From NCBI GenBank assembly GCA_914767715.1, contig OU612066.1:24776283-24840282 (forward strand): a stretch of 64,000 nucleotides of DNA, written 5' to 3'. Positions 8,153 to 56,196 of the stretch are shown one piece after another. The position numbers and the translations under genes are program-made. How positions within the stretch are numbered: the stretch's first letter is position 1; every line of letters starts with the position of its first letter. The DNA is from Membranipora membranacea (Eukaryota; Bryozoa; Gymnolaemata; Cheilostomatida; Membraniporidae). Under the pieces are notes generated by a model, which saw nothing but the letters and a program-made list of their open reading frames with translations, ran no database searches and was not told where the DNA came from.

Positions 8153-11100
8153 GTTGTTCGTAGGGACTGCCAAAAGATTGACAGTCATAATAATGCTCAA
8201 CGGGATATTATCCAGAGTATTATCTGCTCAAGGTTTGTCATAATCCTGTTTTATTTTGTCATAAGCCAGATCATTGGGTGTGTAAATCTACCATAATAAA
8301 TTCTGATGTTATCGTATTGTTATTTCTTTCAGTATTTCCTGTGTTTCTGTTTACAACAACTGACCAAAGCAGAAATATTGATGCTACTCAATATCCAGAT
8401 GGATACATCACCATTGACCCAACCATCAAAGGAGAATACCACAATGTTGAAATGCAAGCACAGCTGTATAATTTGCCAACAACGGGGACTGTGACCTTAC
8501 ACATATATCACTTAAATGAGATACTAGCCAAAGTTCAGAATTTCGCTATCATCAACGATGCCAAATATTTGCCATTGACAAAACCATCAGACGGAAATCT
8601 TCCACTGATATTTCCTGGCTCTGCCGATATCACACTACATTATCAAACAATCCAAAGATATGATGTGGAAGGTGAATCGGTCCACATCAGATATTCAGGT
8701 AATTATGAATGCAATTATTTCGAAGTGCTATATTATATATCAAGTGTTACTCAATTTCTGAATATGTAGTGCGAAAGACTGAATTTATTTCTTTCTTTTC
8801 AAGTTTCTTTTTGGCAACGTGCGGACAATGATTTTGCTATAATTGCAAAAGTTTGAAACAATGCTAGCTGTATAATAATTTTTTACCACTATTCCTATTA
8901 TGTAACATATCATCATCACCTCATCATTGGCTGTCCTTCGAAGATGACTTCTTGTGAACCATGTCTCTCCATTGGCATCTGCTTCTGCTGAGGGATTGCC
9001 AGCTACCAACAGAAATATTTTTATCTTTGAGGTTTCTCTTCACCGTGTCCTTGAACCTCAGCCTAGTTCTGTCAATACCACGTACACCTTCCTTAAGCTG
9101 AGAGTACAGGATTTGTTTGGGTAGTCTTGAGTCATCCATCCTGTGTATATGACCAGCCCAGCTCAAGTTTCTCTGAACATATGATCATAATTATGATTAA
9201 TATACCACACTCCATTATTGCAAAATTTCTTAAATATTTTGTAGTACGGTCGTGTAATATAAACATACCACATCTAAACAGTGAGTTACAGAGGGATAAG
9301 TACAATAGATACACAGTCTCTTGTCTGTCTGGGTTTGAACTTCGCCACAACGTCAATACATTCAGCTGCAGTGGTCAACAATGGGAACCTCCGCTGGAAT
9401 GTGTTCCTCGAAAATCAAGTGGTCACACGCACACAACACAATCTGTTCCAGATGCAGGTACTACTGTCAAATTTCAATTAAGTTTAATGAATATCAATTC
9501 CCACACAACCCATTACCCTACAGAAATAGACTTCTTCTATTTGTAATGAACAACTTGAAGCCTTTACTTGAATAGAATTTTGATATTTGATAAAATAGCA
9601 CTTTGGCTTTCGTTTCATATATAAGACTATCTATCATCAATACTTTGCCTTACTTACAGTGAAACCTGACCCTAATTATGGGACAGAACAGAGGATTCAA
9701 AATAAACGACTTACAAAACACTTCACTGAATATGCTACCAATTCAGGAATGACATCTCTTGCCTCTATCATTTCAATTATTGGACGAACTCTGGGCATAT
9801 TAACAGTCATTGCTATGTTACTTATTTGGCACTACTCTATAGTGAGGTATGTGAATATTTTTCAGGGGATTGATACGTTTTTGCATAGACGGGGATGTGT
9901 AGACAAAACATTTGACCTTTAATTCCTCTAGATACAAAAAAACATATCTGAGTGATATGAGTTTAACTTTATTACCACACCCATTTTCACCAGCTTGCTA
10001 GGAGCTTCATAGCAGTTTTGTTTGCATCTTACTGCTACAGTTTTAATTTTACCAATATCCCTGAGAGGAGGTTTACAATAAGTTTATCAGTAGCGATCAG
10101 CCTGTGTTACCGGCCTTGACTGTCTAGGGGTAAAAACAAGTTAAAGTGAACTGTTTTGATGAAGTTACGCACATGAATTTATGTTAGTTACCTGAACCCT
10201 TGTATTTTCTTTTTAGGACCAGAGTTAAAGAATGTCCAGACCAAATAGAAACTGAGACGGGGACAGTGATTCAAGGTAGGTTTTAGCTGTCATTCTGCAG
10301 GGCCTTCCTTTGCAAACCCTTAAATTCTGTCATGGCCAGTCGTGACCACAGTACATCGCACATCATTGACATGCCAAAACTGAAGCACTGCACTGGCCTT
10401 TCACCTTTCAATATGCTGCTACAGATCACAGTATAATGTCAACTTCTAATAGCGGGTATTTGAAAAGAACTAGCTGATTTTATTTGGATTTGAATTCGAA
10501 AAAAACTTGACAAGTAACCTAGGAATGATTAGACCAACCAGCATATTGATAAGTAGTCTGAGACTACCTTTTTATTCTAACATTTATGAACAGTTTACAA
10601 AAATGTCATAACACCAGTCCTTCATTAGTTATAATCAGTCAAATTTGCTTGAAAATTGAATTCAAATCATGAGATGAAAAACTTCTGCATAAATGATGTT
10701 CACAGTTAATCCTTGTAGTTTGATGATCCCCCAAGCTTGCAGTAATATGCTATGATGTTAACCGGGAAGTAGTCTGTGTCTCTTTTCATACTTTGGTAAT
10801 CCCTGCATCCCATCTCCCCAAGTAACTGATTCAGAATGTCACCACGGAAATAATCTTCTGGACAAAGCCTGCAGCTGCAACTGCGATGGTCATCTGCTAG
10901 ATGCGAAAATATGTGTATCCCATCATAGCTGAACTGTTGACAAATATCTATGCATTCACGAATTCTTATTGTCTTTCTTGTCTGGGCCAACCAAAACATA
11001 TCTAAAAATGAAATAACAGAATGTTTTAAAGTCCATTTTACAATTTCTGAAAACCTTCAACCAAGAACAAAACTACTTAATCTTCGAAAGCTCATGCCAC

Positions 11101-12563
11101 CAAACTTTTTCGTATGATGAAACTATTACTAAACAACTCACACAGTGAAATGCTACTTTTACCAAGTTGCCTACCAGCTAGTAAACGTGAGTTCTTATTC
11201 AGTATGACTACTGATCTTGAAGGTAGACAACTCTCAGGGCTCATGATGATCAAATACCCAAACACGTCCTTCGTTGAGACCCTTAATTTATTTCCAAACG
11301 GCTGGTTTCCATATTGAGGCACTAGGTGATCTAATTCAGGCTGTATGCTGAAGATACATATGGATGCATCAACAACTTGCACATGCACAGATTGCTGATA
11401 AGGAGTTAAATTGTATCAGTGAATCACCCTGAAGGGTGGCTCAGGTCTCCATTTAATTAATTTTATTATATCATATATCTAATGCACAGCAAATTATGTA
11501 GCCTGAGTTCATCATACTGTAACGCTCACCTGGTTTTTCATGGTTGGGTGTTTTACATATTCGTATTCCATCAATATCCCGCTCTACAGCATGAAACGGG
11601 GCAATGAAGAGAGTAATCACTAAAATAAGACAAGCTCCCTTCATTTTCAAGCAAGGCTAGAAACCGAAGTAAATTACTACTTGTCAATGGTTGACCTTGA
11701 CAGATTCTGATTAACTGCCTCCACTTCATGAGTTTATATAACTGAACGCATAATCCGTTATCGTATCATGTATTGATTCATGTTCGTTGTGGTTTTGTTA
11801 AGACGGTTACGCATTTGTGGTTAACGAGTCAAGGATCTCAATTTTACTGAGGAATATTTGCCTGGTATAATGAGAGGGTTTGGAAATCATTCAGTTCTGA
11901 CGGTTTAAATCCCAAACACCTGTCTCCATACCTTAAGACTGTCAAGGTTGATCTTTGAAAATCTCAGGACTCACTTTGTTTTGTCAGACCGAACTTACCA
12001 ATGTGTTATTGAATGTAGATGGCAATGAATGCGATGAAGGCGCTGATGTGATCGAAGGACACGTTAATTCTGCATCAGATTATGAAGTGATAGAGCGAAC
12101 TGATCCTTATCTGGACTACTGTGAGATAAACGAGTACGACACAATGAGCAATGTGAATCCATGTCTCTCTCAGTGTGTCTCCAGGGAAACTGCAAGGAGT
12201 AAATCACCTGACGCCGAGTCTGAACACAGAATAACTGAAAACTTACCACATGCTTCATCAGATATGTTGGGATCAATTTCTCGGGAAATGAGAAAGAGAG
12301 GCATAGATTTGCAGGATAACATTTTCCCGAGTATGAAAACACTTAATTATGGCCCAAGTAGAAAGGCACCAAACACACCTCCAATGCCTTGCAGGGGGCC
12401 TCGGGGATTGCGAGTGTTTTCCGAAAGACAACATACAACTGAAGCTGAGGTGCACAGGATCAATTCTGTGGTGCAATGTGAAAATTTACATACGATACCG
12501 CAACCTGTTATGGTAACAATTCCCAAAACTTCTCACAGTAAAGCTTCCAAAAAGTTCAGATAA
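8153..12563 (+). CDS. U3: single-pass sushi-domain receptor with ITAM tail
   Basis: Exons E1 8153-8232 (ATG at 8193), E3 8333-8698, E4 9245-9457, E5 9660-9846, E6 10217-10275, E7 12019-12563. Coding bases total 1410, an exact open frame of 469 aa. E1 and the start of E3 form a signal-like hydrophobic stretch (GILSRVLSAQVFPVFLF). E3 is the Cys-free domain. E4 is a sushi domain (RSC, VSC, FSC, then QQWEPPLEC). E5 gives a Thr/Asn-rich stalk and a TM helix (IGRTLGILTVIAMLLIW). E7 carries YEVI-x8-YCEI (ITAM spacing; SDYEVI also fits ITIM) and YDTM. E2 is absent, but E1 and E3 share phase so the join stays in frame. The tail ends early by a frameshift relative to U4/U7; an out-of-frame remnant of the usual C-terminus (SVYQVYTLDND-like) runs to 12693. 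Intron 6 contains the antisense gene N3. This is the only receptor here that is open throughout. Confidence 0.75.
8915..9175 (-). mobile_element. RTE-like LINE fragment (reverse transcriptase C-terminus)
   Basis: A minus-strand frame encodes WAGHIHRMDDSRLPKQILY, then KDTVKRNLKD and WQSLSRSRCQWRDMV. This matches the conserved C-terminal tail of endonuclease/reverse-transcriptase proteins of metazoan LINEs (pattern WxGHxxRM...RxPKxxLYxxL...KDxxKxxLK...W). The rest of the element is absent. It lies in U3 intron 3. Confidence 0.75.
10706..11644 (-). CDS. N3: small secreted eight-Cys protein, nested antisense in U3 intron 6
   Basis: Two exons: A 11530-11644 (ATG at 11644-11642, donor GTGAGC) and B 10706-11001 (acceptor TTTTTAG), joined in phase 1 for 136 aa. 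The start MKGACLILVITLFIAPFHA is a clear signal peptide. The mature part has ICK, then CIDICQQFSYDGIHIFS, CSCRLCPEDYFRGD, GC and YYC: eight Cys, no TM. The CxxxC...FSYDGI...CxC pattern resembles PAN/apple or WSC modules; this is a pattern match only. It is transcribed opposite to the receptor that contains it. No lesion is seen. Confidence 0.8.
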
Positions 12564-12693
12564 CACCGCTCCAAAACTTACTCCTCCATCATCAGGTGCA
12601 AGCTGTGAATCGGAGGACGCTCTCAGTGTTTATCAAGTTTATACACTTGATAATGATGGTTTGGTAGAATTTTTTTATCGAGATTATGATTAA

Positions 12694-18404: not shown

Positions 18405-21400
18405 GTTGTTCGTTTGGACTGCCAAATGTTTGCAGCGATAATAGCAATGTACGGAGTATTATCTGCTCAAGGTTTGTCATAATCCTGATTTATTTTGTCA
18501 TAATTTTGATCATTAATAACACTGATAAACACCATAAAAATGCAACAAAGAATAATTTTATGGAATTAAATAACAAATGTTGAACTATTATTTGCATGAC
18601 CTTATCATTGCCTAAACTATATAACTAAGATAACCCTGACAGTTCTTGTTCGATTCCCTTTATTCAACCTGTCCTGTGATGATATCATTTTCACCCAGTA
18701 AAATCTAATACTATCAAGAACCTCTGTGCCACCAAATGCTCAGACAAGTAATTGCAATGTTTTAGGTCTGCCGGTAGGAGGACTGACTGCAGAGGACACA
18801 ATTAACTTAGATAAAGCTGGTGTTTGCAGTTGGGATAACAGTAGTGATGGCAAGGGCTCTGACAAAATAAGATGCTGTGGAGCAAAGATTACAGGAGTCG
18901 AAAGCAAACCACAGTTTCATCAGATCCGGATTAAAGGTTCCTGTGACAACTGTGTTATCGTCTTTAATCATCGGAGTACTAACACCGGCTCATGTCTGTC
19001 GAACATAAGATAGTTAGTAATCCAGAGAATGGAACTTGCCTGGAACAGAGGGAATACTTCAGAGGCCAGATTGATTTACTGCTGTGGGTTGAAAACTGAG
19101 TCAAGGCTGAAATTATCATCAAATTTGCAGGTAAATGCTTATTGCAGGTTGGTTATGATCAAAAAATAAAGATTATGAAGTTAAGCCTAACTACCCTATT
19201 GATCAATTCCTCTATTCAGCTAGATGATTTCCTAGCAGTATCCATTTCCCATAATAGCCCTACATTCACTTACCAAGTATACCTTTCATCAGGTAAATCG
19301 TCTGCTGTGAAAATTTACCATATTGAATTCCAATGCATATTTTTACTGTTATTTCTTTCAGTATTTCCTGTGTTTCTGTTTGCAATGTCGGACTCTAATG
19401 GTAATATTGATGCCAGTCGCTACCCAGATGGATACATCACAGGAAAATATTGCAATAACACATCAAACAATCTTATGTAAGCTGGAGTTATTAATTTGTC
19501 TGTAGCAGGAACTGTGACTGTATACACAGATGCGACATAAGCGAAAGTTCAGAGACTCAATATGTTCAGTTCCGATATTGTTTATGATTTAACTCAACAA
19601 TCTGACAGCGATCTCCAAGTTGAGCTTTTTGGCCCTTCCAACATCACATAGCATTATCAACCAGAGCAGGGATATGATATGAAAGATGAATTGATCCATA
19701 TCAGGTATTTGGGTATGTATTTGTGTACTAATTATGTCCGAGGTGTCAATGGGCTTAAAAATCAATTTGATTGACTGGCGGCTGCACCCCTAGGATTTTA
19801 GTGTTATGTAGCATCCAAGGATTAGAGCGTTTGAAAAATTCCAAGATTGTGCAATAATTTACAACAACTTTATTTATCATCATTCCATGTTGCTATACCA
19901 TCATCATATTCTTACTCTACCATACCACAAATCTAATCATGATTGATTGATTTTTAGTGAGGTCTTGTAATACCAACAATGCAAATCTGAACATGCGAGG
20001 GTTAGAATGGGAAACTGATCGGAACTACAGAGCCTCTTGTCTGCATGGGTTTGAACTTCAGCACAAAGCTAACACATTCAGCTGCAACGATCGGCAATGG
20101 GACCCGCCACTGGAATGTATTGTTCAAAACTCGAGTGCTCAAACACACACAACAGAATCTTCCCTTGGCACAGGTCCAGCCTTTTTATCTGCACGGTGTC
20201 TGTTTCCCTTTACCGTCTTAATCTAACTAAAAGTTAAACTGAAAACCAAAATGTTTTTGACTGCTTGGACAAAATCATTGCATTTTCGTAGATCCGATTA
20301 TACAGAATATATTTCTGTAGATCTTTTTTATGACAAGCTAGAAGCTCTTTTTCACTCCAGTTGTCTTACAATTCCCAAGTGTAAAGCCATCATAAATAAA
20401 TTGACTTGCTTTCAGGGACAACTTACCACATAGATGGTGGAGATCAGAAGCCCCAAAGTCTAGAACAACAAACCACTGGAAGTAGACAAACCATGACTGA
20501 GAAAACAGTTACAACCGATTCAACAATTATATGTACTTCGTCTATAATATCCATTATTGGAACCACTCTGGGCTTATTGACCATCTTTGCAATGTTACTG
20601 ATCTGGTACTGCACTACAGTGAGGTAGGTGAATATGCCTAAGTAGATTGATAGGTTTTTGCAATGATCGTTCTTTGTGGCCGAAAAGTTGGAACTAAATT
20701 TAATCTAAAAGCATTGGAACATTATCTTGACAACAATTTTCATAGCATTGTGTTAATATTACAGTGTAATTTGGCCACTGTCATAAGGTAGTTGTAAGTT
20801 TAAGATGATTTTTTCATGGTATGTCTGCGCATTGATTGACATTGGTCTAATTTTTACAACTTACAACTTAAAGTTGGCTACCTTAAGTGGGAATCTAAAT
20901 AAAAAAAACGGGTGAGTAAATATTAGCTAGGCTTTAATGTTGAATGAATGAGTGTTCAATCATTGGCAAAATTGTTACCTTTTTTTCTGCGATTAATTTA
21001 CTCTTCTAGGGTAATTAAACCCTGAAGCTCACAGTGCAAGCTCTCAATAACTTGAAGTGATTAATATAAATTTGCCTTATATATATAAAACACAATATAT
21101 TATAAGGAAAGGTTAAAGATGTCCTGTAAGCAAATAAACCACCTGCGTGACGGAGCTGCTCTAACTATGCTAGCTCCAAGCTGTTCCAAATAATGCATGC
21201 TTTTACCCTTTGATTTTTGTTATCTAGGGTTAGATCTGAAGTGTCTGCAAACCAAACGATCATCGAAACGAGAACTCCCATTCAAGGTATGTGTCAGCTG
21301 TCCATGATTGATATGGTGCTTATTTTATGGTAATTTACAAGTCTAGGGGGCTCAGACTAGTTTTTTAGATTAAGCAAGAAGTACTCCTTGGTTTAAGTGC

Positions 21401-23817
21401 TTAAAATCACAACCGGGATCTGACAGGTAAATCAATTGTAACATCATTGCTACTACACAATCTAGCGTTGTAACACCAGCAACAATAAAGTGCCTCACTT
21501 TATTTGGATAATATAGTGTCCTGTCTAGGTTTACTATTAAGTCTATGGTTTAAACCCTTTCATTTGATTTGATTCAAAGAGACTAACAACCTCAATATTA
21601 GATAGATCAAACAGGTAGTTTGTAATTGGTCATTCATGATTTATTTGCAATTACAAATGCTTCAACACCAGGCCCCTAAAATGTAGATTCAGTTAAAAAG
21701 GCTTAAATTCCAAAAGTAATTGGGCTCATGAGAAAAATACTCCTATTCAAAAACATTGTTTTCTGAAAAGCAGTTCAGTCCGATTGCCTGCAATAAAAAG
21801 AATGGATGATGCGACTATTCAAATACCATTTTCTTTTCATACTTTTGTGATCTCTGCACCCCATCAGTTCTAGTAACCGATCAAGTTGTTTACCACGGAA
21901 ATAGTCTTCTGGACAGAGCCTGCAGGTACACCTGGGATTATTTTCATCCAGATATGAAAATATTCTTATCCCATCATAGCTGAACTCTTGACAAACGTCC
22001 CTGCAGTCATAATACGACTTTATAGTTTCTGTTCGAGCCAACCAAAACATGTCTAAAAATAAAATACAAGGATATTTTACTGTTGAACAACAAAATCTGA
22101 AATCATTCACTCAGGGAGTGTAAGTCCTTAAACTACTTGTGTAAGACCACTGCAAACAGATTTACAAGTTTCAAAAGGGTTTTAGCAAAGAACTCAATAG
22201 GTCTGTATCATCTCTCTCATATCAGGGATAAATCAATTGTTCATATTTAAAATCTTTCAACAAATATTTACAAATGTAGACACAACGCAAAGAATCTTGA
22301 TGACCTCTATGGTCAAAATCAGGACTTAATTTGAAATGACCCTACCGTCATCATGTAAATACTATATTTGATGTTTAAGGTCCTAACGTTATCATGAGCC
22401 GCCAACTCTAACAATCTTCATGATTTTCATACATGGCTCTTAGATTTTCAGCCCAAACACATTTTACTTGGAGACTCACCTGGTCTTTCATTGTACGGTC
22501 GTTTACATGTCCGGACTGGGTTTTTTATTAATATATAGTCTCTAGCATGAATAGATGGAGTGATTACAAGAGTAACCACTAATATAAGACCTGCTCCTCT
22601 CATTATTAATCAAAGCTGCAGCTATAGATAGTAAATGCTTCTTGTCTATGATTGACCCAAACAAGTTATGATTCACTGTATCTCTTGTCATAACATTTAT
22701 ATAATTGGTGTCTAATCCTTGGTCGTCACTAATACCATGCAATGATCTAGTTGTTGTGGTTTTGTGAAGATGCTTACGCATTTGTGGCTGAAAAGTCAAG
22801 TATCTCAACTGCCCTCAGAAACACCTTGATTATGCCAAATATCATGAAAATACAGAGTTTAATGATGCATTGAATCATTTGGATATGGTGGTGCGACCTG
22901 AATACATACCTTACAACAAAAATTCTACATATTTGTCTTGCCCTTATGTCAGTGACTTATACAAGAAGTTGTATGAAAGTGGGCATTTTACTACTTGCAA
23001 GGTTAGGCGCAGCATAAGTTCCTGCTGTCATATAATTTTTGTGTAAAGGGAATGGTGTGAATAGCTGCTACTGTTGAACTATAGAAATGTTGATCATAAT
23101 AATCTTGTAATTTTCATACCAATGTATTATTTTATTTGACTTAGATGGCGATAAAGCTGCCGACGTGACAGAAGGGAACATTGATTCTGTGTCAGATTAT
23201 GAAGTGATCGAGCGAACTGATCCTTATCTGGACTACTGTGAGATAAACGAGTACGACACAATGAGCAATCTGAATCCGAGTCTCTCTCAGTCTGACTCAG
23301 AAGAAACTTCAAGGAGTAAATCACCTGATGTTGAGTGTGAACACAGATTAACCTCACAAAAGACTTCATCAGATTTATTGGGATCGAATTCCTGGGAAAT
23401 CAGTAAGAGAGGCATAGTTTTGCATAAAAAACAGGTTTCAAATTTCCCGAGCAAAAAGAGCCCTCGTTTCAGCTCGAAAAGAAAGATACCCACAACACCT
23501 CCAATTCCTTGCTAGGGGATCGAGGATTGAGAGTTTTCTCCGAAAGGCAACAGACAACTGAAGCTGAGTTGCGCAGGAATAATTCCATAGAGCATTGTGA
23601 AACCTTACATAAGGTAGTGCAACCTGTTTTGTTAACAATTCCTAAAATATCTCCCAGTAACACATCACTTCCAAAATGTTCAGATAACTCTGCCCCGAAA
23701 CTAGCTCATCCACAATTGGGTGCAAGCTGTGATTCGGAGGACGCTCTTAGTGTTTATCGAGTTTATACACTTGATAACGATGATTTTGTAGAATTTTTTT
23801 ATCGTGATTATGATTAA
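18405..23817 (+). pseudogene. U4: complete but inactivated receptor gene
   Basis: All seven exons are present: E1 18405-18471 (ATG 18426, giving the signal MFAAIIAMYGVLSAQ), E2 18766-19130, E3 19362-19712, E4 19958-20173, E5 20416-20623, E6 21228-21286, E7 23145-23817. E2 has a 1-base deletion near 19008 and a CGA-to-TGA-type stop near 19098. E3 has two TAA stops near 19478 and 19538. E7 has TAG at about 23513 plus a 1-base loss, after which the normal C-terminus (SVYRVYTLDNDDFVEF) reads to 23817. The sushi exon E4, TM exon E5 and the ITAM core are undamaged. Splice sites are intact. U4 is closest to U7. It carries the intact antisense gene N4. Confidence 0.85.
21775..22603 (-). CDS. N4: small secreted eight-Cys protein, nested antisense in U4 intron 6
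   Basis: Exon A 22480-22603 (ATG at 22603-22601, donor GTGAGT) and exon B 21775-22052 (acceptor ATTTTTAG) join in phase 1 to 133 aa. The signal is MRGAGLILVVTLVITPSIHA. The mature chain has TCK, CRDVCQEFSYDGIRIFS, CTCRLCPEDYFRGK, GC and FYC. It is nearly the same as N7, and fully open although the surrounding receptor gene is dead. Confidence 0.82.
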
Positions 23818-28192: not shown

Positions 28193-28385
28193 GTGTCACG
28201 GCCTCAGAAAGCAGGGATAAGTAGGAAATCAAAAAAATTGAGATTCTTCTTTCATCTTGTACAGAATTTTATGAGCTTTTCAACAAAAAAAGAAACATGT
28301 CTTTAGCTCAAATAAATTTGAAGTTTGAGAAAAAAATTTGCGGGCCCGTCGGCCCTGTTGTCCATTCCATCTAGCTGAGAAAACG

Positions 28386-37913: not shown

Positions 37914-39344
37914 GTTGTTTGTTTGGACTGCCAAAAGTTTGCAGCGTTAATAGCAATGTACGGAGTATTATCTGCTCAAGGTTTGTCATAATCCTGATTT
38001 ATTTTGTCATAAGTCTGATCATTAATAGCACTGATAAACACCATGAAAATGCAAAAAAGAATAATTTTATGGAATTAAATAACAAATGTTGAACTATTAT
38101 TTGCGTGACCTCATCATTGCCTAAACTATATAACTAAGATAAACCTAACAGTTCTTGTTCCGATTCCCTTTATTCAACCTGTCCTGTGATGATATCATTT
38201 CACCAACAGTAAAATCTATTCCTATCAATAACATTTTTGCCACCAAATGCTCAAACAAATATTGCAATGTTTTAGGTCTGCCGGTAGGAGGACTGACTGC
38301 AGAGGACACAATTAATTTAGATGAACCTGGTGTTTGCAGTTGGGATGACAGATGTGATGGCAAGGGCTCTGACAAAATAAGATACTGTGGAACAAAGATT
38401 ACAGGAGTCGAAAGCAAACCACAAATTCGTCAGATCCGGATTAAAGGTTCTTGTGACAACTGTGTTATCGTTTTCAACCATAAAAGCACTAACAGCGGTC
38501 CATGTCTGTTAAACAAAACACTAGTTAGCAATACAGAGAACGGAACGTGCCTGGAACAGAGGGAATACTTCAGAGGACAGATTGATTTACTGCTGTGGGT
38601 CGTAAACCGAATTAAGGCTAAAATTAACATCAATTTTGCAGGTAATGTTAATTGTTTGTTGGTTATAATGACAGAAAATAAAGGTCCTGAAGCCTTGCTA
38701 CCCTGTCGGATGGTGGCTTTGCTCATTCAGCGAGATGATGCCCTGCCAGTTTCAGTTTCCTTTATCCAGGGCGCTTTTGGTTTTCATCAGCTTAATTATT
38801 TGCTGTCTAATTTTCCACAATGAACTTCAATGCATTCTTTTTTATTTCTTTCAGTATTTCCTGTGTTTTTGTTTAAAATGTCAGACTCCAATAATGATAT
38901 CGATGTCAGCCGATACCCCGATGGATACATCACCAACTATCCAACTTCAAACGAGCTAAACCACAATGTCACGTGGAACAAAATAATGCATGCAGTACTT
39001 AGCAATTTTCCGGCAGCAGGGACTCTTACCATGCACATATATCAGTTAAATGAGACACTAGCAAAAGTTCAGAGTTTTGTCCTTTATAGTGATTACCGTA
39101 CTTTCAATATTAGCAAGCATTTTGATGGAAATAGGCCATTTATATTTCATGGATCTAAGCCTATCACACTTCGTTATCAACATTAGAGGGATATGATTTG
39201 AAAGGTGAACAGATCCATATAAGTTACTCAGGTATGTATGAGTGTACTTATTAAAAATTGTATTCATAGCTGGGAATGTCAAACATTGTGCAACTGCGAA
39301 GCAGCTGTTTGACTACCTAAATATAATTGTCTTTTATCACCCTC

Positions 39345-39730
39345 AGGGGTCAGGAGTGGTCTGATGGTTAAGGGTGCAGACTTGAGATCTGTAAGGTTTA
39401 AGTTCAATCCCCAGTACCGGTAGTCATTCTTGATTTGGTACTGGCATGCCATTTATCCTAGCCAGGTCCTTGCAGAACAAGACTAATAATACATGTGGTC
39501 CACTGTGTGTTTGAACACCCCACCAGCAGTAAAAATATCCCCCTCTGCCTCTTTGTTTAAAAAGAGTAGCCGGACTCCCGGCTGGCAAGGGTATAGGGCG
39601 CGGCCTGAGCTCCATGGGTCTCAGTACCTGTACTCTAGAGGGGACATCCCTCACCGAATGAGGACAACTTACCACCCTTGGGTATTCTGTATCATATCAC
39701 AGTGTGTATTTATATTGTAAAATACATATA
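39345..39730 (+). mobile_element. tRNA-Ser-like SINE in U6 intron 3
   Basis: The head has TGGTCTGATGGTTAAGG and B-box AGTTCAATCCCC (39401-39412), with an arm whose loop reads CTTGAGA (TGA anticodon position). The body matches 3100-3500 in reverse. Short open frames on either strand inside it are not genes. Confidence 0.72.
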
Positions 39731-41194
39731 CTTTTATTTAACCAAAGTCCATAAAATGTAGTAATGATTGATTATTTTGTAGTGCGATCATGTAATATGA
39801 GTGTCACACATCTGAACATGCATAAGTTAAGGAGAGTCAATCCTGAAACGTATGAAGCCTCTTGTCTGTCTGGGTTTGAACTTCGCCACAAGGTCAATAC
39901 ATTCAGCTGCCAAGGTCAACAATGGGAACCTCCACTGGAGTATGTTGCTGAAAACTCTGCCCCTTATGCAGGTACCACATTTTAATTTGTTTCCATTCCA
40001 TTCCTAGCAGTTTTTTGGGGTCATTTAACTCAAAAATTGTTGAGTAGAATTCCATGAAACATGAAACACATAATACTTCTCAGACAAGAAATGGCAAAAT
40101 GAAAATATGAAATATTATGTAATATTTTACATTATCTGTTAATTACAATAATTAGTGAGAGGTGATTAGGTTCTGAGAAAAGCATCGGGTACGACATTGT
40201 TATTTTGATGTCAGATGACCTCGAGATTCAATATGACCAATTGACAGTAAATCACTGCAGATCAACAGTTCTTATCATGATTGAGTTAAAACTCAGAATA
40301 CAGGGGTTATGACATCTTATAACTTCACACTTTTGCAATCTCCAAATATTGCCACCATAAATAGGATGTGGCTGCTGGCTAGTAGTTTCTGATCATGCGT
40401 GACCTCAATATGCAAGATGGCTCATTGTATGATTTTACAATATTAGCTCTCAAATATTGGCCTCGTGTAGGTTATTCTTGGATTTTTCACCCTTGTTCTG
40501 TGAAAATAAGCAAGCAGTTTATGTTCAGCATTAAAATACTTCGGTTTGCTTACAGTGAGCACTGATGGCAACTATGGTGGAGACCAGGGGCCACAAAATG
40601 GAGATCTACTAACCACGCATAAAGAATCAGTTACCGACTCAACAATACCATCTGCTGCATCCATCATATCCATCATTGCAACAACTCTGGGTTTATTGAC
40701 GGTCATAGCAATGTTGCTGATTTGGTATCGCACTATAGTGAGGTATGTGAATAGGCATCAGTGGTTAAATGATTTTTCGTATAGATAAATCTGTGTAGAA
40801 AAAAACATAATGTGAGCAACGATCTGCTACTGCATCACCTTGGCAAGTGGAATGTTGAGAATTCAGGTTTTTTCTCCAGTTAGATTATTGCCTTTTCCTC
40901 AAAATCCATCATAATTACTAGAATAATTACATTGAAATAAAGGGAAAAAAAACCCCTATATTAGTAAAAAAAATCATTCTGTCTCTTTGTGGTCCTGCAC
41001 TTATTTGGGCGGTATCAGTCAATTATAACTTTACAAGAGGATGGTATTTTTTTATTGGCGTAATGCACAAGTGAAGAGGACGATCATTGTAATGTGACAT
41101 TTTGATGAATTGGTCTTAATGTTATACTTTGAGCAGCGATAGTTTGTCAGGTTATTCATTGTGATTTTCTGCATCTGTTTGAATAATGCAGCGC

Positions 41195-41549
41195 TTGTGA
41201 ACACTGCTTAGAACAAGTTTAATCCAATTGCCTGTATTCCTGTTGCTCCCTTCCACTGGTCACGCCGCAGGACTAGCGGATCGGGATCGACTATAAATAC
41301 AGGTGAATGGACCAAACTTGATCTAACACTGGTTTAAGCTCTACTAGTTAACACACCAGCTAGACATCACCAATTCAACCCTATACTCGATTTTCAAGTT
41401 ATCTCTGTGTAGCAGTGTTAGACCAAGTTTGGTCCATTTGCCTGTATTCCGAGTCGATCCCGATCCACTAGACCTGCGGCGTGAACAGTGGAAGGGAGCG
41501 ACAGGAATGCAGGCAATTGGATTAAACTTGTTCTAAGCAGTGTTCACAA
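41195..41549. mobile_element. 355-bp element with roughly 135-bp inverted terminal repeats
   Basis: The left end TTGTGAACACTGCTTAGAAC and the right end are reverse complements; the match continues through TCCCTTCCACTG, CGCCGCAGG and GGATCGGGATCGACT to near CTAACACTG. A short related piece occurs at about 43025-43062 (GAATGCAGGCAAACTGG). It sits in U6 intron 5. No clear target duplication is seen. Confidence 0.75.
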
Positions 41550-42306
41550 ACTACGGCCCAAAGAAAGCTGTTTCAAATGATCGAACGATACCTGAATATT
41601 AATCGCTGTATTTTGTTATCTAGGGTCAGAACAAAGGTATCTGCCAGTCAAACAATAACCACAGAAGCATCAGTAGAAGGTATGTGTCAGCTGTCCATGA
41701 TTGTCATGTACCACATTTCCAGCGAATTATCTATTTTTTCTATTGGCCCTGCCTTTGTCAACTGTTCAATTTGACCATTTCTCAGGGAGTTATTAGCACA
41801 GCAGCCAGGCATGATGCTTTCATCTTGCATAATAAATAGTTTCACTAGTGTTGCATTCAGGGAAGCTTGAGAAATTTCCATTAAGATAATTGCATCAAAG
41901 CTTAATAAATTTCCACTTAACAACACATGAGGAATATAAAACACTGAACAGGTGTAACAACTCTCAAGATGCAGTGTAAGAGCAGTGAAGTCAAATTCTA
42001 TATACCTTTGCAGAGCTATTTTACAAACGCTGTTGATCAGATCAGATGTTAAAGAGATATGTTCGAAAGCCACTTAACAAATAACCTTGGTATAAAAGGT
42101 AGAATGGCCTAACAACAAGTCATTTATATTAGGATTATTATGATCATTTTATTTTCCATAGTATGTCATTGGATTGATCTTCATACATGAAAGCATTTTA
42201 GAAAACTAGAAATGTTGTTAGCATTGTTTATGAGCATACTCAATTACACAAGCTCAGTTGGAAGGCTATCAAAAATTAATTGAAACACACCTAATTTGAA
42301 TAGAAT

Positions 42307-43291
42307 TCACCCATACCGCTTGTATTTTCGTGGCCCCAAATTCTTGCAATAATAAGCTAATAGCACTCGATCGTCCTTATACCATTTTCGTATCATACTA
42401 TCAAAATCCTTGCAGCCCATAAGGCTCAGTAACAGCTTAAGTTTATCACCACGGAAATAGTCCTCCGGGCAGAGCCTGCAGCTGCAACTTCTGCCATTCT
42501 TTGATAGATTAGAAAATATTTGTATCCCGTCATAGCTGAACTTTTCCTGACAAGTTTCCACGCAGTCATAATAGTTTATTAACGTCTGAGTCGGTGCCAG
42601 CCAAAACATGTCTAAAAATGAAAAGAGAAAATAATTAACACCTATATTTGATACCTTACATAATCAACAATATGAGTATTTTATGATAATACAGCCATTT
42701 CAAATGTTTAAAAATCAGTGAGAATTATCTGACATAATAATATTTTCTGAAGCCTGTAAGCGATATAGACAACAAAAGTTTACAGACTCTTTCTACCGAG
42801 TTTGAAAAATTATGAACAGAAGAGTCTTGAGAATTTTAAATGACGAGTGGAAAAAATTACAAATGTAGAGGGGGATAGCTACGTGCTGTTAAACTCCTAC
42901 TTTTCAGAAACTGCCTCCCTTGACATCATTGAGTTTTTGAGGTACAATCTGCTGGTATGGGCTTTAATCCTGACAATCTCAATGGATTAGGTGCTTATTC
43001 TGGATCACTGTTTGCTTGCGGGAAACCTGAATGCAGGCAAACTGGATCAAACTTGATCTAATGATTAGGCTACTTTGACTTATCAATCTGCAAAACTTCT
43101 TGCATGGCCGCCGGCTGGCTCTCACTTGAAAATATGCAGCCTGAATGCATTTTACATAAATTCTCACCTGGCTTTTTTGGGTAGGGCTGTTTACATATTC
43201 GTATTCCCATGAAATCATACTCATAGCTGGTAGCATGAAGATATGGAGCAATGAAGAGAGTTATCGCTAAAATTAGCCGATCCCCCCTCAT
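42307..43291 (-). CDS. N6: small secreted eight-Cys protein, nested antisense in U6 intron 6
   Basis: Exon A 43168-43291 (ATG 43291-43289, signal MRGDRLILAITLFIAPYLHA, donor GTGAGA) and exon B 42307-42611 join in phase 1 for 142 aa. The mature chain has ICKQPYPKKP, CVETCQEKFSYDGIQIFS, CSCRLCPEDYFRGDKLK, GC and YYC. A longer upstream in-frame start exists at 43309, but the signal peptide and the other copies favour 43291. Intact. Confidence 0.82.
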
Positions 43292-44431
43292 TATTAATCC
43301 AGCTGACACTGAGGGAAAAATAGCTTCTTGTCAATGAATGACCTCAGCAAGTTCTGATTTACAGTGCCTCTTTTCATGAGTTTATATAAGCAGTGTAACT
43401 GGAGGTCTAATCTTGATCGTCACTGGTATCTGACATTGATCCTTGTTGGTTGTGGTTTTATGAAGGTGATTACGCATTTGTGGTTAAAGAGTTAAGTATC
43501 TTAATTTTCCTCAGAGACACTTGGCTCCAGTATCCCTGAGGAATATATGCCTGGAAAGATAAGAAAGTTAGGAAATAAAAATCGCATGAGGCGCCTTCTT
43601 TGCTACAATTAGTCAAAATAATTTCATACAATTCAGAGTGTTGTAGTCCTAAATATATCTCTTCATATCTAAAACAATTGAGGATGGCTTCGAAGGTGGA
43701 ATTCTGCGTCCTTATACTTACTGATGTGTTATTTAATGCAGATGGCGGTGAATGCGGTGAAAGTGCTGATGTGAACAAAGGACGCATTGATTCTGTGTCA
43801 GATTATGAAGTGATTGAGCGAACTGATCCTTATCTGGACTACTGTGAGATAAACGAGTATGACACGATGAGCAATGTGAACCCAAGTATTCGTCAGTGTG
43901 ACTCCAAGGAAAGTGCAAGGAGTAAATCACCTGATGCCGGGTCTGAACACAGTTTGACCGAAAACTTACCACAGACTTCATCAGACTTGTTTGGATCGAT
44001 TTCCCGTGAAATAAGTAAGAGAGGCATAGATTTGCATAAAAAACAGGTTCCCAATTTCCCCAGCATGAGAAGACCTTATTATAGCTCGAAAATAAAGGTG
44101 CCTAAAACACCTCCCATGCCTTGCAGGGGGCCTAAGCGATTGAGAGTATTTTCTGATAAACATCAAACAGCTGAAGCTGAGGTGCACAGGAACAGTTCAG
44201 TAGAACAATGGGAAACTTTACACACAATAGCGCAACCTGTTTTGGTAAATATTCCTAATATTCCTCACAGTAACGCATCACTTCGAAAAAGTACCTCAAA
44301 CAAACACAGAAAAAATAAAACATCCACCATCAGGTGCAAGCTGTGATTTGGAGGATGCTCTCAGTGTTTATCAGGTTTATACACTTGATAATGATGATTT
44401 TGTGGAATTTTCTTATAGTGATAATGATTAA

Positions 44432-46260: not shown

Positions 46261-46299
46261 ATCACTTTCACTTTCATCGCTGCTATTTGGAAATAGGAC

Positions 46300-49120: not shown

Positions 49121-50696
49121 TAAACCAACCAACAAGCCATGCTGCTCTGTATGTTTTTGTTTAAAATTGTGATCGATTGTCGTCGCGAACAAATTCAAGG
49201 TGTTGTTGAATTTTGTATAAATATATTATATATACAATATATCACTCAGTAAAACATAGGAATATAGGTTACTTCATTGAAGAATTACTTGCACTGCTAG
49301 CCTGTCTTTTGGAATGAAGATCGGCATAATATCCATTTCACAGGATAAGGAGTAAAAATCACAGTTCAAATGGTGTACTATGATTGAATGATCAAGTGGA
49401 TGCAAACCACAAATATAATCTTGTCTAATTAAAATTGACCAGCTATGCATTTGGGCTTTATTGTTGAAACTTTTACTTATGAAAAGGCCAAGTAGCCATG
49501 CAGGACTTTAAATAAGGTTTCAATCAAGTTGTTGGATCTCTCAACTTTTTTTGGTAAAAGACAAAGGAATGAGGCAACTATTACCGCAGAATAATATGGT
49601 TTAGCCCTTCTCATTTTATGTCAACACACCATGTAACTGTGGAAAGGAAGGTACCATATCTCCTTGTATTTTATTATGTTTTTTTTGTATCAGTAGCTGT
49701 TCAATCGAAGACACTCATAAATCAATCCTATCCTATACTATCTTAGTGGTGGTTTTATCAGGAGGGTCAAACTGGCGGGCAAATGAGGGGGTGCACGGGG
49801 ATTAATCATGTGTAGTGACAGCCAAGACCATTGGCTGATCAGTATAATTAGAGGCGGAGACTGGCCAATCCAAGTTGGATTTGGGCTTTACATGTCAAGC
49901 ACTTGACATTTTTCTCAAGTGGTCAAGTGTGTTATATAAGAAATTATGATTTGCAGACACCTATAAATCAAGTTTATAATATGGCTTCAATTATTATTAT
50001 TATCGATGCATGATACAAAATATGAGTGCTTTAATTAATATAGAGTGAGATGTCAAAAAATGGATGGTCACAATCGTTCACTGAGTATACTGGTTTTAAC
50101 TAATCTGGTAGGCAATACAATAGTTCGTTTATGACAGTATTATATCATTTCCAACTGTAACAGACAAAGAGATTAGTATCCTTATTTACACCTTAGGTTA
50201 CCACCATTACACCAGCGTAAACACTTGACAGTAAAACCAATGATTACGTCAATGTAACAAAAACTTAATATGCCATCTGGTCGAATATCAGTGAAAAAAG
50301 GTGATTGGAGTAGAAATCCTGGATTGAGGCAAAAGCATTAATGATTATTCTAAGCCTCTTATTTGCTGGGAGCAGGAAATGCGCAGTTCTCTTCGATCAA
50401 CGTAATGATGTTCATTGAACAACCAATCAGATAAAGGCTAAGCAGTACAAAGGGTAAGAGATTAGCATTCTCCTCAGCTTAATTATTATAATCAATCACT
50501 TAAACAAAAAGGGCATAACCTGATAAACACTGAGGGCTTCCTCAAGATCACAGCTTACAGTAAAGTACAGTGGTGGATTAATAAAGACATCAATCATCAT
50601 TATACCACCTTCCTAGCCGGTTGATATTACGTCCATTGGAACCAGAATCATAGCAAATATTTAGACTATCATGGCCATTACAAATACTTGGAACAA
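49121..50696. other. Intergenic, with 3' flank of U7 at its right end
   Basis: 49490-49740 repeats the block at 25320-25560. 50050-50640 is the inverted copy of the E7 3' flank belonging to U7. No gene is seen. Confidence 0.5.
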
Positions 50697-53600
50697 TCAA
50701 AAAATACACATGCGCAATAGAAATAGTGTAAGATATCTTCGTATCTCGCTTTCAGCTAAATCATTATCACGATAAAAAAATTCTACAAAATCATCATTAT
50801 CAAGTGTATAAACTTGATAAACACTAAGAGCGTCCTCCGAATCACAGCTTGCACCCAATGGTGGATGAGCTAGTTTTGGGGCGGAGTTATCTGAACATTT
50901 TGGAAGTGATGTGTTACTGGGAGATATTTTAGGAATTGTTAACACAACAGGTTGCACTACCTTGTGTTAAGTTTCACAATGCTCTACAGAATTATTCCTT
51001 TGCAACTCAGCTTCAGTTGTCTGTTGCCTTTTGGAGAAAACTCTCAATCCTCGAGCCCCCTTGCAAGGCATTGGAGGTGTTGTGGGTATCTTTCTTTTCG
51101 AGCTAAAATGAGGGCTCTTTATGCTCGGGAAATTTGAAACCTGTTTTTTATGCAAATCTATGCCTCTCTTACTTATTTCCCGGGAAATTGATCCCAATAA
51201 ATCCGATGAAGTCTGTTGTGAGGTTAATCTGTGTTCACACTCAACATCAGGTGATTTACTCCTCGAAGTTTCTTCTGAGTCAGACTGAGAGAGGCTCGGA
51301 TTCAGATTGCTCATTGTGTCGTACTCGTTTATCTCACAGTAGTCCAGATAAGGATCAGTTCGCTCGATCACTTCATAATCTGACACAGAATCAATGTTCC
51401 CTTCTGTCACGTCAGCAGCTTTATCGCCATCTAAGTCAAATAAAATAATACATTGGTATGAAAATTACAAGATGATTATGATCAACATTTCTATAGTTCA
51501 ACAGTAGCAGCAATTCATACCATACCCTATACACAAAAATTATATGACAGCAGGAACGTACACTGCGCTTAACCTTGCAAGTAGTAAAATTCCCATTTTC
51601 ATACAACTTCTTGTATAAGTCAATGACATACAGACAAGACTAATATGTAGAATTTTGGTTGTAAGGTATGTATTCATGTCACACCACCATCTCAAAATGA
51701 TTAAATGCATCATTGAACTCTCTATTTTCATGATATTTGGCATAATCAAGGTGTCTCTGAGGCGAGTTGAGATACTTGACTTTTCAGCCACAAATGCGTA
51801 AGCATCTTCACAAAACCACAACAACCAGATCATTGAATGGTATTAGTGATGATCAAGGATTAGACACCAATTATATAAATGTTACGACAACAGATACAGT
51901 GAATCATAACTTGTTTGGGTCAATCATCGACAAGAAGCATTTATTATCTACAGCTGCAGCTTTGATTAATAATGAGAGGAGCAGGTCTTATTTTAGTGGT
52001 TACTCTTGTAATCACTCCATCTATTCATGCTAGAGACTATATATTAATAAAAAACTCAGTCCGGACATGTAAAGGACCGTACAATGAAAGACCAGGTGAG
52101 TCTCCAAGTAAAATGTGTTTGGGCTGAAAATCTAAGAGCCATGTGTGAAAATCATGAAGATTCTTAGAGTTGGCAGCTCATGATAATGTTTGGACCGTGA
52201 ACATCAATTATAGTATTTACATGATGATGGTAGGGTCATTTCAAATTAACTCCTGATTTTGACCATAGAGCTCATCAAGATTCTTTGCGTTGTGTCTACA
52301 TTTGTAAATATTTGTTAAAAGATTTCAAATAAAGACAATTGATTTACCCCTGATATGAGAGAGAGATGATACAGACCTATTGAGTTCTATGGTAAAACCC
52401 TTATGAAACTTGTAAATATGCTAGCAGTGATCTTACACAAGTAGTTCAAGGACTTTTACTCCCTGAGTGGATGATTTCAGATTTGTTGTAAAACATCCTC
52501 TTATTTTAATTTTAGACATGTTTTGGTTGGCTCGAACAGAAACTATAAAGTCGTATGATGACTGCATTGACGTTTGTCAAGAGTTCAGCTATGATGGGAT
52601 AAGAATATTTTCCTATCTGGATGAAAATAATCCCAAGTGTACCTGCAGGCTCTGTCCAGAAGACTATTTCCGTGGTAAACAACTTGATCGGTTACTAGAA
52701 CTGATGGGGTGCAGAGATCTCGAAAGTATCAAAAGAAAATGGTATTTGAATAGTCGCATCATCCATTCTTTTTATTGCAAGCAATCGGACTAAACTGCTT
52801 TTCAGAAACCGATTTTTTTGAATAGGAGTGTTTTTCTCATGACCCCAATTACTTTTGAAATTCAAACCTTTTTAACTGAGTGTACATTTTAGGGGCCTGG
52901 TGTTGAAGCATTTGTAATTTTTCAATTCATGAGTGACCAATGACCAATTACCTACAGCAAAATAAAAAGATTTTCTCGAATTCGGTTTGCAGGCTGTTTG
53001 ATTTATCTTTTATAGAGGCTCTTTGAATCAAATCAAATGAAAGGGTTGAAACCATAGACTTAATAGTAAACCTAAACAGGACACTATATCCAAATAAAGT
53101 GAGGCACTTTATTGTCGCTGGTGTTACAACGCTGGATTATGTCTAAAAGACTAAAGACTAAAAGAACAAAACAAGTGGTACTGCGGAACTAAAAAACTTA
53201 CAATGGTGATAAAAATAGTCACTCAGCAGCTGTTATCTGCCATGTAAATAGCTGCCCAGTGAGTTAAGTGCAGTCAAAGGGTAGTTAAAGGGCAACCAAG
53301 GTTTCGCAGCAATGCATTAATGGGTAGCAAATAATGTGCTGGGCAGCATCAGCTTTGTGCATTACGCGATGCAAAACTCAAAGTAGTTGCTGACTCTAAG
53401 CTGGGTAACACTTCAGTTTAGGGGAGGTTCCAAGACTTTGCTGTAATAATTATAGAGCACAGGCTAAATAATAACAGGAACAGGAAACTGCTATGTGGTA
53501 TTCTCTTTTAGCTGAGTTTGAGTGCCTGATGGAAGAAATGTTTCACAAGAATTCTGGCTGAATAATCATCTGAATTATATTTTGTCTTTTTCCCCATGCA

Positions 53601-56196
53601 GAAGGTGCAATCTGCTATTAATCAATGGCCATCAATGAGAAGTTGTTTGAAACCTTGGTTGCACTTTAAGCTTACACCTATGTTATGACAGACAGTTGAT
53701 TATCTTTTTGTATAAGGAAGTGGCCAAATTACACTGTAATATTAACACAATGCTAAGAACATTGTTGTCAAGATAATGTTTTAATGCTTCTAGATTAAAT
53801 TCAGTTCCAACTTCTCGGCCACACAGAACGATCATTGCAAAAACCTATCAATCTGCTAAGGCATATTCACCTACCTCACTGTAGTGCAGTACCAGATCAG
53901 TAACATTGCAAAGATTGTCAATAAACCCAGAGTAGTTCCAATAATGGATATTATAGACGAAGTAGATATGATTGTTGAACTGGTTGTAACTGTTTTCTCA
54001 GTCAAGGTTTGTCTAGTTCCAGTTGTTAGTTTTTCTAGACTTCGAGGCTCCTGATCTCCACCGTCTATGCGGTCAGTTGTCCCTGTAATCAAGTCAAATT
54101 ATTGATGATGGCTTACACTGTGGGAATTGTAAGACAAGTAGGTAAAGAGAGCTTCTAGCTTGTAATAAAAAAAAAACTACAGAAATAGTTGTAAAATTGG
54201 TGTCTAGGAAAATGCAATGATTCTATCCAAGCAGTCCAAAAACATTTTGGTTTTCAGTTAAACTTGTAGTTATAATAAGACGGTAAAGGGAAACACACAC
54301 ACTGTACAAATAAAAGTCAGAACCTGTGTCTGGTGAAGATTCTGTTGTGTGTTTTTGAACACTTGTGTCTTGAACAATACATTCCAGTGGTGGCTCCCAT
54401 TGCCGATTGTTGCAGCTGAATGTGTGAGCTTTGTGCCGAAGCTCAAACCCTTGCAGACAAGAGGCCCTGTATTTCCGATCAGTTTCCAACTCTAACCCTT
54501 GCATGTTCAGATTTGCAATATTGGTATTGCAAGACCTCACTAAAAATCGATCAATCATGATTATATTTGTGGTATGGTAGAGTAAGAATATGATGTTGGT
54601 ATAATTTACTGCCAACTGGTAAATAAAGTTGTGGTAAATTATTTTAATCACAATGTGCAAAAACTTGCACATTATCAAAACCATGACAGTGTAATGGTAG
54701 ATGGAATATTCTTTGCTAATGATATGATGTTAGTAGCAACCGACTTCCAGTAATATGTGTGCTTCACAGTTGCACAATTTTGGAACTGTTCGATCGCTCA
54801 ATTCCTCAGATGCTACATAACACCAAAATCCTAGGGTTGCAACATCCAGCCTATCAAACTCCTTTTAAAACATTGGACACTTCTGATATAATTAGTACAT
54901 AAAATACATACCCGAATACCTGATATGGATCAATTCATCTTTCATATCATATTCCTGCTCCGGTTGATAACGCAGTGTGATATTGGTAGGTCCAAAAAAC
55001 TCAACTTGTCGATCGCTGTCAGAATGTTGTGTTAAGTCATGAAAAACTTTGGAGCTGGAAATTTGGAGTTTCTGAACTTTTGCTAGTGTCGCATCAATGT
55101 ATATAGTCACAGTTCCTGCTACTGGCAAACTAATAAGTCCCGCTTGCATAAGATTGTTTGATGTGATATTGCGATATTTTCCTGTGATGTATCCATCTGG
55201 GTAGCGACTGGCATCAATATTACCATTAGAGTCTGACATTGCAAACAGAAACACAGGAAATACTGAAAAATAACAGTAAAAATATGCATTAGAATTCAAA
55301 ATGGTAAATTTTCACAGCAGACGATTTACCTGATGAAAGTAAACTTGGTTAGTGAATTTAGGGCTATTATGGGAGATGGATACTGATGCTAGGAAATCAG
55401 GGTAAATAGGCTTAACTTCATAATCTATATGTTTTGATCATAACCAACCTGTAATAAACATTTACCTGCAAATTTTATGATAATTTCAGCCATGACTCGG
55501 TTTTCAACCCGCAGCAGTAAATCAATCTGGCCTCTGAAGTATTCCCTCTGTTCCAGGCACGTTCCATTCTCTGGAATACTAACTAGCGTTTTGTGCAACA
55601 GACATGGGCCGCTGTTCGTACTCTGATGATTAAAGACGATAACACAGTTGTCACAGGAACCTTTAATCCGGATCTGACGATACTGTGGTTTGCTTTCGAC
55701 TCCTGTAATCTTTACTCCACAGTATCTTATTTTGTCAGAGCCCTTGCCATCACTTCTGTCATCCCAACTGCAAACACCAGGTTCATCTAAATTAATTGTG
55801 TCCTCTGCAGTCAGTCCTCCTACCGGCAGACCTAAAACATTTCAATTACTTGTCTGAGAATTTGGTGGTGAAGAGGTTCTTGATTGTATTAGATTTTACT
55901 GTTGGTGAAAATGATATCATCACAGGACAGGTTGAACGAAGGGAATCGGAACAAGGACTGTTAGGTTTACCTTAGTTATATAGTTTAGGCATTGATGAGG
56001 CCATGCATACAATAGTTCAACATTTGTTATTTAATTCCATTAAAATATTCTTTTTTGCATTTTCATGGTGTTTATCAGTGCTATCAATGATCAGACTTAT
56101 GACAAAATAAATCAGGATTATGACAAACCTTGAGCAGACAATACTCCGTACAGTGCTATTAACGCTGTAAAACTTTTGGCAGTCCAAACGAACAAC
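50697..56196 (-). CDS. U7: receptor gene, open ectodomain and TM, no E6 found, late stop in tail
   Basis: Minus-strand exons E1 56129-56196, E2 55466-55831, E3 54912-55262, E4 54324-54539, E5 53875-54082, E7 50967-51430. E2 to E5 are all open: six-Cys domain; Cys-free domain; sushi (RSC, ASC, FSC, QWEPPLEC); stalk and TM (TLGLLTIFAMLLIWYC). E1 gives a signal ending LIALYGVLSAQ with no in-frame ATG. No E6-like exon is visible between E5 and N7; 53140-53690 is unrelated DNA there. E5 and E7 are not in compatible phase, and direct splicing gives a stop within four codons. E7 keeps the ITAM core but has TTA-to-TAA at 50967; the same frame then continues with the usual C-terminus, whose own stop is also lost. 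It may make a tailless receptor, or be decaying. Confidence 0.65.
51972..52793 (+). CDS. N7: small secreted eight-Cys protein, nested antisense in U7 intron 6
   Basis: Exon A 51972-52095 (signal MRGAGLILVVTLVITPSIHA, donor GTGAGT) and exon B 52516-52793 (acceptor AATTTTAG) join in phase 1 for 133 aa. The mature chain has TCKGPYNERP, CIDVCQEFSYDGIRIFS, CTCRLCPEDYFRGK, GC and FYC. It differs from N4 at only a few residues. Intact. Confidence 0.83.
53140..53690. other. Unrelated sequence where U7 exon E6 should be
   Basis: Flanks on both sides match U4 intron 5/6 sequence, but this interval does not. It contains no E6-like frame, no clear inverted ends and no recognised gene. It may be an insertion/deletion replacement. 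Confidence 0.45.

What the first reader, a model, noticed from the sequence alone, without database searches (positions are those of the whole stretch)
8153..56196. An antisense secreted-protein gene nested in intron 6 of every receptor unit
U3, U4, U5, U6 and U7 all contain, between E6 (or E5) and E7, a two-exon gene on the opposite strand for a small eight-Cys secreted protein. The pairing survived every duplication and inversion. A secreted protein locked to a signalling receptor suggests a linked ligand/receptor or decoy pair, or a regulatory antisense arrangement.
Basis: partly seen in the sequence, partly recalled or inferred. Interest (0 to 1): 0.9.

Follow-up and report, generated by a model that had tools for sequence, protein, structure and literature searches.

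The report
Secreted-protein gene nested in receptor introns
In an unidentified animal's genome, members of a large family of immune-type cell-surface receptors carry, inside one intron and on the opposite strand, a small gene for a secreted protein; in the cluster read here the small gene is intact even where the receptor around it is broken, which suggests an old linked secreted-protein and receptor system.

Summary
All five units U3-U7 carry an intact two-exon antisense gene (N) for a secreted eight-Cys protein of 133-142 residues, between the TM/E6 exon and tail exon E7. In the surrounding 200 kb, 12 of 12 N genes lie this way. Genome-wide, 94 of 110 tail-exon loci (weak hits included) on 10 of 18 contigs have an N on the opposite strand just upstream; three control placements give 0, 1, 2. 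N looks like a real gene: TATA box in 23 of 23 copies, purifying selection (pN/pS 0.39). The receptor has CUB-like and sushi domains, a TM helix and a tail with ITAM-spaced tyrosines.

A ligand, co-receptor or decoy role is plausible, unproven. Closest precedent: v-Themis nested in s-Themis (PMC7018956), same geometry, different proteins. Organism, expression, polymorphism and binding are unknown.

The parts
8153..8232 (+). U3 receptor E1: signal-peptide-like exon with an acceptor in front (so an earlier exon is expected)
   Evidence: boundaries read from sequence
8333..8698 (+). U3 E3: CUB-like domain exon, phase 1-1
   Evidence: fold
9245..9457 (+). U3 E4: sushi (CCP/SCR) domain exon, phase 1-1
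9660..9846 (+). U3 E5: stalk and transmembrane helix
10217..10275 (+). U3 E6: short juxtamembrane exon
10706..11001 (-). U3 N exon 2 (seven Cys), antisense in the E6-E7 intron
11530..11644 (-). U3 N exon 1 (signal peptide, first mature Cys)
11733..11740 (-). U3 N TATA box, 96 nt upstream of the ATG
12019..12563 (+). U3 E7: cytoplasmic tail with YEVI-x8-YCEI and YDTM; a 5-base deletion shifts its 3' part (homologous frame 12577-12690)
18406..21288 (+). U4 receptor E1-E6, broken (three stops in E3, frameshift in E2)
21775..22052 (-). U4 N exon 2, intact
22480..22603 (-). U4 N exon 1, intact
23129..23814 (+). U4 E7, frameshifted
28340..28825 (-). U5 E7, premature stop
29271..29394 (+). U5 N exon 1, intact
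29701..30005 (+). U5 N exon 2, intact
30674..31301 (-). U5 E6 and E5 (E5 donor altered; E1-E4 not found)
37915..41681 (+). U6 E1-E6 (one-base deletion in E3)
42307..42611 (-). U6 N exon 2, intact
43168..43291 (-). U6 N exon 1, intact
43717..44428 (+). U6 E7 (one-base insertion in 3' part)
50760..51446 (-). U7 E7 (late stop)
51972..52095 (+). U7 N exon 1, intact
52516..52793 (+). U7 N exon 2, intact
53874..56195 (-). U7 E5-E1 (stop at the start of E2; no E6 found)

Best explanation
The thing is an old composite unit. The outer gene encodes an immune-type receptor: signal peptide, an optional Cys-rich E2 domain, a CUB-like domain, a sushi domain, one TM helix, and a tail with an ITAM-spaced tyrosine pair. 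Its last intron holds a complete two-exon gene N on the opposite strand, head-to-head with the tail exon, with its own TATA-type promoter elements, encoding a small eight-Cys secreted protein (read from sequence). The unit has been duplicated, inverted and dispersed to at least 10 contigs with N mostly in place (shown by position). N is under purifying selection and, in the C2 cluster, stays intact where its host receptor decays, so selection acts on N itself. Inferred: N works in trans as the soluble partner (ligand, co-receptor or decoy) of receptors of this family in self/non-self or immune recognition, and nesting keeps matched variants on one haplotype, as in Ciona's v-Themis/s-Themis.
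For: Pairing: 12 of 12 in the C2 cluster; 22 of 22 N copies read with flanks; 94 of 110 tail loci on 10 contigs with controls 0/1/2. 16 of the 21 N loci found only fall in the slot. An N too diverged for the first query sits in the same slot on C3 (by eye; then).
N as a gene: intact ORFs in 12 of 12 cluster copies; TATA 23 of 23 against 8% in shuffles, ACCACA 22 of 23 against 8%; pN/pS 0.39, P 4e-18 over nine pairs; 0 N lesions against 26 in receptor exons of the cluster, Poisson P 0.001.
Precedent: PMC7018956 passages.
Against: No binding, expression or polymorphism data. The partial Mantel test for N-ectodomain co-divergence beyond linkage is not significant. By eye at most about 3 of 12 cluster hosts look codable, so most units are not working pairs in cis. 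N is not intact everywhere: L004 is frameshifted and 11 of the 63 hits hold an in-frame stop (two of these show none against a closer query), against 27 of 86 longer tail hits, so genome-wide the contrast between N and tail is modest. The U4/U7 pair alone gives pN/pS 1.30 on 12 changes. Nested genes can persist passively. 36 of 130 N loci had no tail exon detected; whether these stand alone or lie beside diverged tails was not tested.
Confidence: 0.45

Rival explanations
1. Passive carriage. N entered the last intron of an ancestral receptor gene long ago and is copied whenever the unit duplicates. It has an unrelated secreted function (for example antimicrobial or effector) and no interaction with the receptor.
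For: In the C2 cluster N stays intact when the host receptor is broken. N divergence tracks the adjacent non-coding spacer (r 0.97) and adds nothing significant with the ectodomain once that is controlled. PMC3933685 passages show nested pairs copied by duplication in vertebrates.
Against: Among roughly 100 copies, with several partial duplicates in the C2 cluster, 16 of 110 tail loci lacked a detectable N, at least one of them degenerate. In PMC3933685, 19 of 63 vertebrate nested pairs had lost host, nested gene or both in frog or chicken. Passive carriage does not by itself predict persistence across dispersal to 10 contigs.
Confidence: 0.35
2. Cis-antisense regulation. Transcription of N across the last intron interferes with elongation or splicing of the receptor, making receptor and N expression mutually exclusive or limiting tail inclusion.
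For: N is oriented against the receptor in 22 of 22 read copies and has a conserved TATA box inside the intron, so transcription of the two would collide.
Against: Protein-level purifying selection and Cys conservation in N show that the product matters. The mature mRNAs would not overlap. In the C2 cluster N persists in units with a dead host.
Confidence: 0.12
3. E7 is not the receptor tail but the first exon of a separate gene sharing a bidirectional promoter with N, so N would not be nested at all.
For: The N start and the E7 hit are head-to-head 373-645 bases apart in the 12 cluster units. In U6 the open frame upstream of E7 holds an in-frame Met codon.
Against: An AG acceptor precedes E7 and joins in phase to the E6 donor (by eye). 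In U3 no Met precedes the tyrosine motifs in the open frame. The tail carries tyrosine signalling motifs expected behind a TM helix.
Confidence: 0.05

Closest known systems
v-Themis / s-Themis self-sterility pairs of Ciona (PMC7018956, passages read)
   Same: A gene for a protein outside the cell lies in an intron of a receptor gene on the opposite strand; linkage is thought to stop recombination between the two.
   Different: There: pairs A and B are nested in the first intron (passages; the title names three pairs), a polycystin-1-like sperm receptor and an egg-coat ligand (fibrinogen-like: recalled). Here: about 94 slots, last intron, CUB-sushi-ITAM-type receptor and a Cys-rich protein without Pfam match; no functional or polymorphism data.
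Fester / fester co-receptor (FcoR) families of Botryllus (PMC12065747, passages read)
   Same: Large, haplotype-clustered type I receptors with signal peptide, sushi domain, TM and (FcoR) long tail with Yxx(I/L/V) motifs, encoded next to a partner gene.
   Different: FcoR has Ig domains; here E3 is CUB-like and E2 is unplaced. In Botryllus the partners are two membrane receptors side by side, not a nested secreted gene; a term search for intron, antisense and nested in that paper's main text gave 0.
LRRTM genes nested in alpha-catenin introns (PMC3933685, passages read)
   Same: An opposite-strand nested gene copied together with its host by duplication.
   Different: Three nested pairs, host is not a receptor, nested gene encodes a membrane protein; partner loss is documented.
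Complement-type CUB/sushi proteins (C1r, C1s, MASPs, factor H)
   Same: Domain kinds: CUB fold and sushi.
   Different: Here a membrane receptor with a signalling tail; no protease domain in the exon model.

Membership tests
Themis-type nested ligand/receptor pair | secreted-protein gene inside an intron of the receptor gene, opposite strand | tested here: met
   (last intron, not first)
Themis-type nested ligand/receptor pair | host is a polycystin-1-like receptor | tested here: not met
   E3 CUB-like, E4 sushi, single TM, tyrosine tail
Themis-type nested ligand/receptor pair | nested product is fibrinogen-like (recalled) | tested here: not met
   no Pfam match for N: 1 protein; 19 exon-2 sequences; only chance-level hits
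Themis-type nested ligand/receptor pair | multi-allelic, co-inherited N and receptor variants | not testable with these tools
   one assembly only
Fester/FcoR receptors | sushi domain, TM, long tail with Yxx(I/L/V) motifs | tested here: met
Fester/FcoR receptors | Ig domains in the ectodomain | tested here: inconclusive
   E3 is CUB-like; E2 was not folded
CUB domain (E3) | CUB fold | tested here: met
ITAM/ITIM receptors | YxxL/I-x(6-8)-YxxL/I in the tail | tested here: met
   9 of 9 tails given to (copies without an early stop were chosen); phosphorylation untested
Known secreted Cys-rich families (for N) | profile or fold match | tested here: inconclusive
Nested gene | whole gene within one intron of another, own splice sites and promoter | tested here: met
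   by sequence only; transcripts not available

The most novel reading that the evidence does not exclude
A polygenic recognition system of nested ligand/receptor cassettes: about a hundred units, each able to supply a soluble recognition protein from one strand and an ITAM-type receptor from the other, in which units with dead receptors remain as ligand donors. Haplotypes would differ in which ligands and receptors are live, giving individual identity by gene content.
Probability: 0.25. Interest if true: 0.93.

Novelty: new variant of a known kind. Interest (0 to 1): 0.76.

Why it matters
An opposite-strand ligand gene inside a receptor intron is known from Ciona self-sterility (pairs A and B in the passages read of PMC7018956). 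Here the same geometry is the rule in a family of roughly a hundred receptor loci with signalling tails of immune type. If N binds the receptors, this would be a multigene recognition system whose ligands can be read directly from the receptor introns, making the search for ligands of orphan receptors directly testable. If it does not, it is still a striking case of a nested gene kept by selection while many of its hosts decay.

Tried and rejected
N as a known family: no Pfam hit above chance, no PDB sequence relative, no fold match (exon 2 only), no protein homologue in the large database (one candidate, none scored). A resemblance to PAN/WSC Cys patterns was considered from memory and not supported by any search.

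Ligand-receptor co-evolution: raw Mantel correlations looked striking (N-E3 r 0.94 against N-E7 0.67) but were rejected as evidence after partial tests (10 units only). Tail exons seem homogenised among units.

E7 loci without N: one search left 27 of 76 unpaired. Reading L045 and two further N queries filled most. 16 of 110 remain, partly weak or partial tail hits. 36 of 130 N loci remain without a detected tail: C2:24.10-24.29 Mb (13), C9:13.25-13.42 Mb (9), C3:26.74-26.86 Mb (6), C8 (5), C4 (2), C6 (1); not followed up.

Organism: a planned tunicate marker search (Pfam PF01341) did not complete. Animal origin is inferred from domain types only.

Papers: searches (the last listed 10 of 219) showed no report of a nested gene in every member of a receptor family; that is a statement about those listings only. 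Passages were read of PMC12065747, PMC7018956 and PMC3933685; the others were seen as listings.
Full report
WHERE. The window is C2:24776283-24840282 of an unnamed assembly of 339 Mb in 18 contigs. Domain kinds suggest an animal; the species was not identified.

THE OBSERVATION. Mapping exon translations back to the window gives five units, U3 (+), U4 (+), U5 (-), U6 (+) and U7 (-), with N exons on the opposite strand between E5/E6 and E7. N exon 1 encodes a signal peptide and the first mature Cys; exon 2 encodes seven Cys in a fixed pattern (19 exon-2 sequences; Cys 17, 21, 42, 44, 47 and 88 invariant, Cys 66 nearly so). In 200 kb around the window (L021-L040) 12 of 12 N genes are intact, with ATG, GT-AG intron and a 133-142 aa ORF. 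Of ten further loci, L002, L010, L015, L016, L017 and L042 gave full ORFs. In L003 the script took a later donor. L004 is frameshifted near its end. In L018 and L019 the script found no G|GT donor; an A|GTAAGT donor is visible by eye.

FAMILY-WIDE PAIRING. Flanks of ten dispersed N copies show E7 head-to-head in all ten: nine, and L042 (the locus of L020, where 1.5 kb was too short) with E7 about 1 kb off. A C9 unit (L043) has E2, E3, E4, TM, antisense N and an open E7; its E1 and E6 were not clearly found. Genome-wide tail hits and N hits were matched by position. With the first queries 49 of 62 N loci and 49 of 76 tail loci paired within 4 kb. One apparent exception, L045 on C3, proved by reading to hold an N too diverged to be found. 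Adding the second N query gave 63 of 76 tails, controls 0, 3 and 4. With three N queries and two tail queries, 94 of 110 tail loci and 94 of 130 N loci pair within 2.5 kb, on 10 contigs, with 347-1878 bases between hit edges (median 1027). Same-strand upstream 0, opposite-strand downstream 1, same-strand downstream 2. Several of the last N and tail hits are short and weak (E up to 0.1), yet 16 of the 21 N loci found only fall in the slot.

N LOOKS LIKE A GENE UNDER SELECTION. A TATA box lies 72-100 bases before the ATG in 23 of 23 copies (8% in shuffles). ACCACA, which from memory resembles a RUNX site, lies further upstream in 22 of 23 (8% in shuffles), in 13 of 23 twice at a spacing of 28 bases. 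Nine pairs, each copy used once, give pN/pS 0.39 (P 4e-18), though the U4/U7 pair alone gives 1.30 on 12 changes. Median pairwise dN/dS in the C2 cluster: N 0.34; E2 0.43, E3 0.51, E4 0.40, E5 0.58, E7 0.42.

HOSTS IN THE CLUSTER ARE MOSTLY BROKEN. E2, E3, E4 and E7 copies hold 26 stops or frameshifts in 18.6 kb (17 of 46 exon copies); N holds 0 in about 5 kb, expected 6.9, Poisson P 0.001. This count includes stops that follow a frameshift, shared lesions, and two fragments without N (F, U2), and some lengths were rounded, so P is approximate. Further losses: E1-E4 not found in U5, E1-E3 in U9, E5 in A, E6 in U7; E5 donor altered in U5. By eye, only U1, U3 and, if E2 is skipped, B could encode a receptor with an ITAM region. 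Assembly error cannot be excluded for single-base lesions. Outside the cluster the contrast is weaker: 11 of 63 N hits hold an in-frame stop (two of them none against a closer query), against 27 of 86 longer tail hits, and L004's N is frameshifted.

CO-DIVERGENCE. Distances of N correlate with E3 (0.94), E4 (0.87), E5 (0.85), more than with the nearer E7 (0.67). At protein level N correlates 0.97 with the N-E7 spacer, and N-E3 given that spacer falls to 0.18 (P 0.16). So there is no sign of ligand-ectodomain co-evolution beyond linkage, with low power (10 units).

MECHANISM. Shown from sequence: nested antisense gene, its own promoter-like elements, protein-level constraint, family-wide slot. 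Inferred: N acts in trans as a soluble partner in a recognition system signalling through tyrosine motifs. Passive carriage is the main rival and is not excluded.

KNOWN SYSTEMS. The Themis pairs share the geometry but not the protein families. FcoR shares sushi, TM and tail motifs but has Ig domains; no nested gene is mentioned in the passages read. N had no recognisable relatives.

The genome-wide stop counts for N, the 4 kb controls, the weaker Foldseek result and the Met codon in U6 were added; the Themis pair count was mended.

Noticed in passing
window 3418-3491 (-) and 39349-39422 (+): A tRNA-Ser(TGA) prediction lies 116 bases downstream of E3 in U2 and U6, same strand as the receptor; none was predicted elsewhere in L021-L043.
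   Followed up: partly
window 46297-49003 (+): Long ORFs that look like a LINE-type retrotransposon (endonuclease/reverse transcriptase, by eye) between U6 and U7.
   Followed up: no
window 18172-25500 and 49501-57216: U4 and U7 are inverted copies, 87-91% identical over their three main blocks.
   Followed up: partly
window 3607-4926 (-): U2 is a receptor fragment (E1-E3) without TM, N or tail.
   Followed up: yes
G000:C2:24871207-24885766 (L039-L040): A degenerate unit (X10) with a partial tail exon about 0.6 kb after E6 and no N between.
   Followed up: partly
G000:C2:24098364-24286535: Cluster of 13 N-like exon-2 hits, all on + strand, with no tail exon found nearby; a further receptor subfamily or free-standing N genes.
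   Followed up: no
upstream of N, e.g. U5 at -196 and -168 of the ATG: Two ACCACA motifs exactly 28 bases apart in 13 of 23 N upstream regions, on C2 and C9.
   Followed up: partly
E7 3' part in U1, U3 and U6: Different frameshifts alter the tail end after the tyrosine motifs, leaving the motifs in frame.
   Followed up: partly
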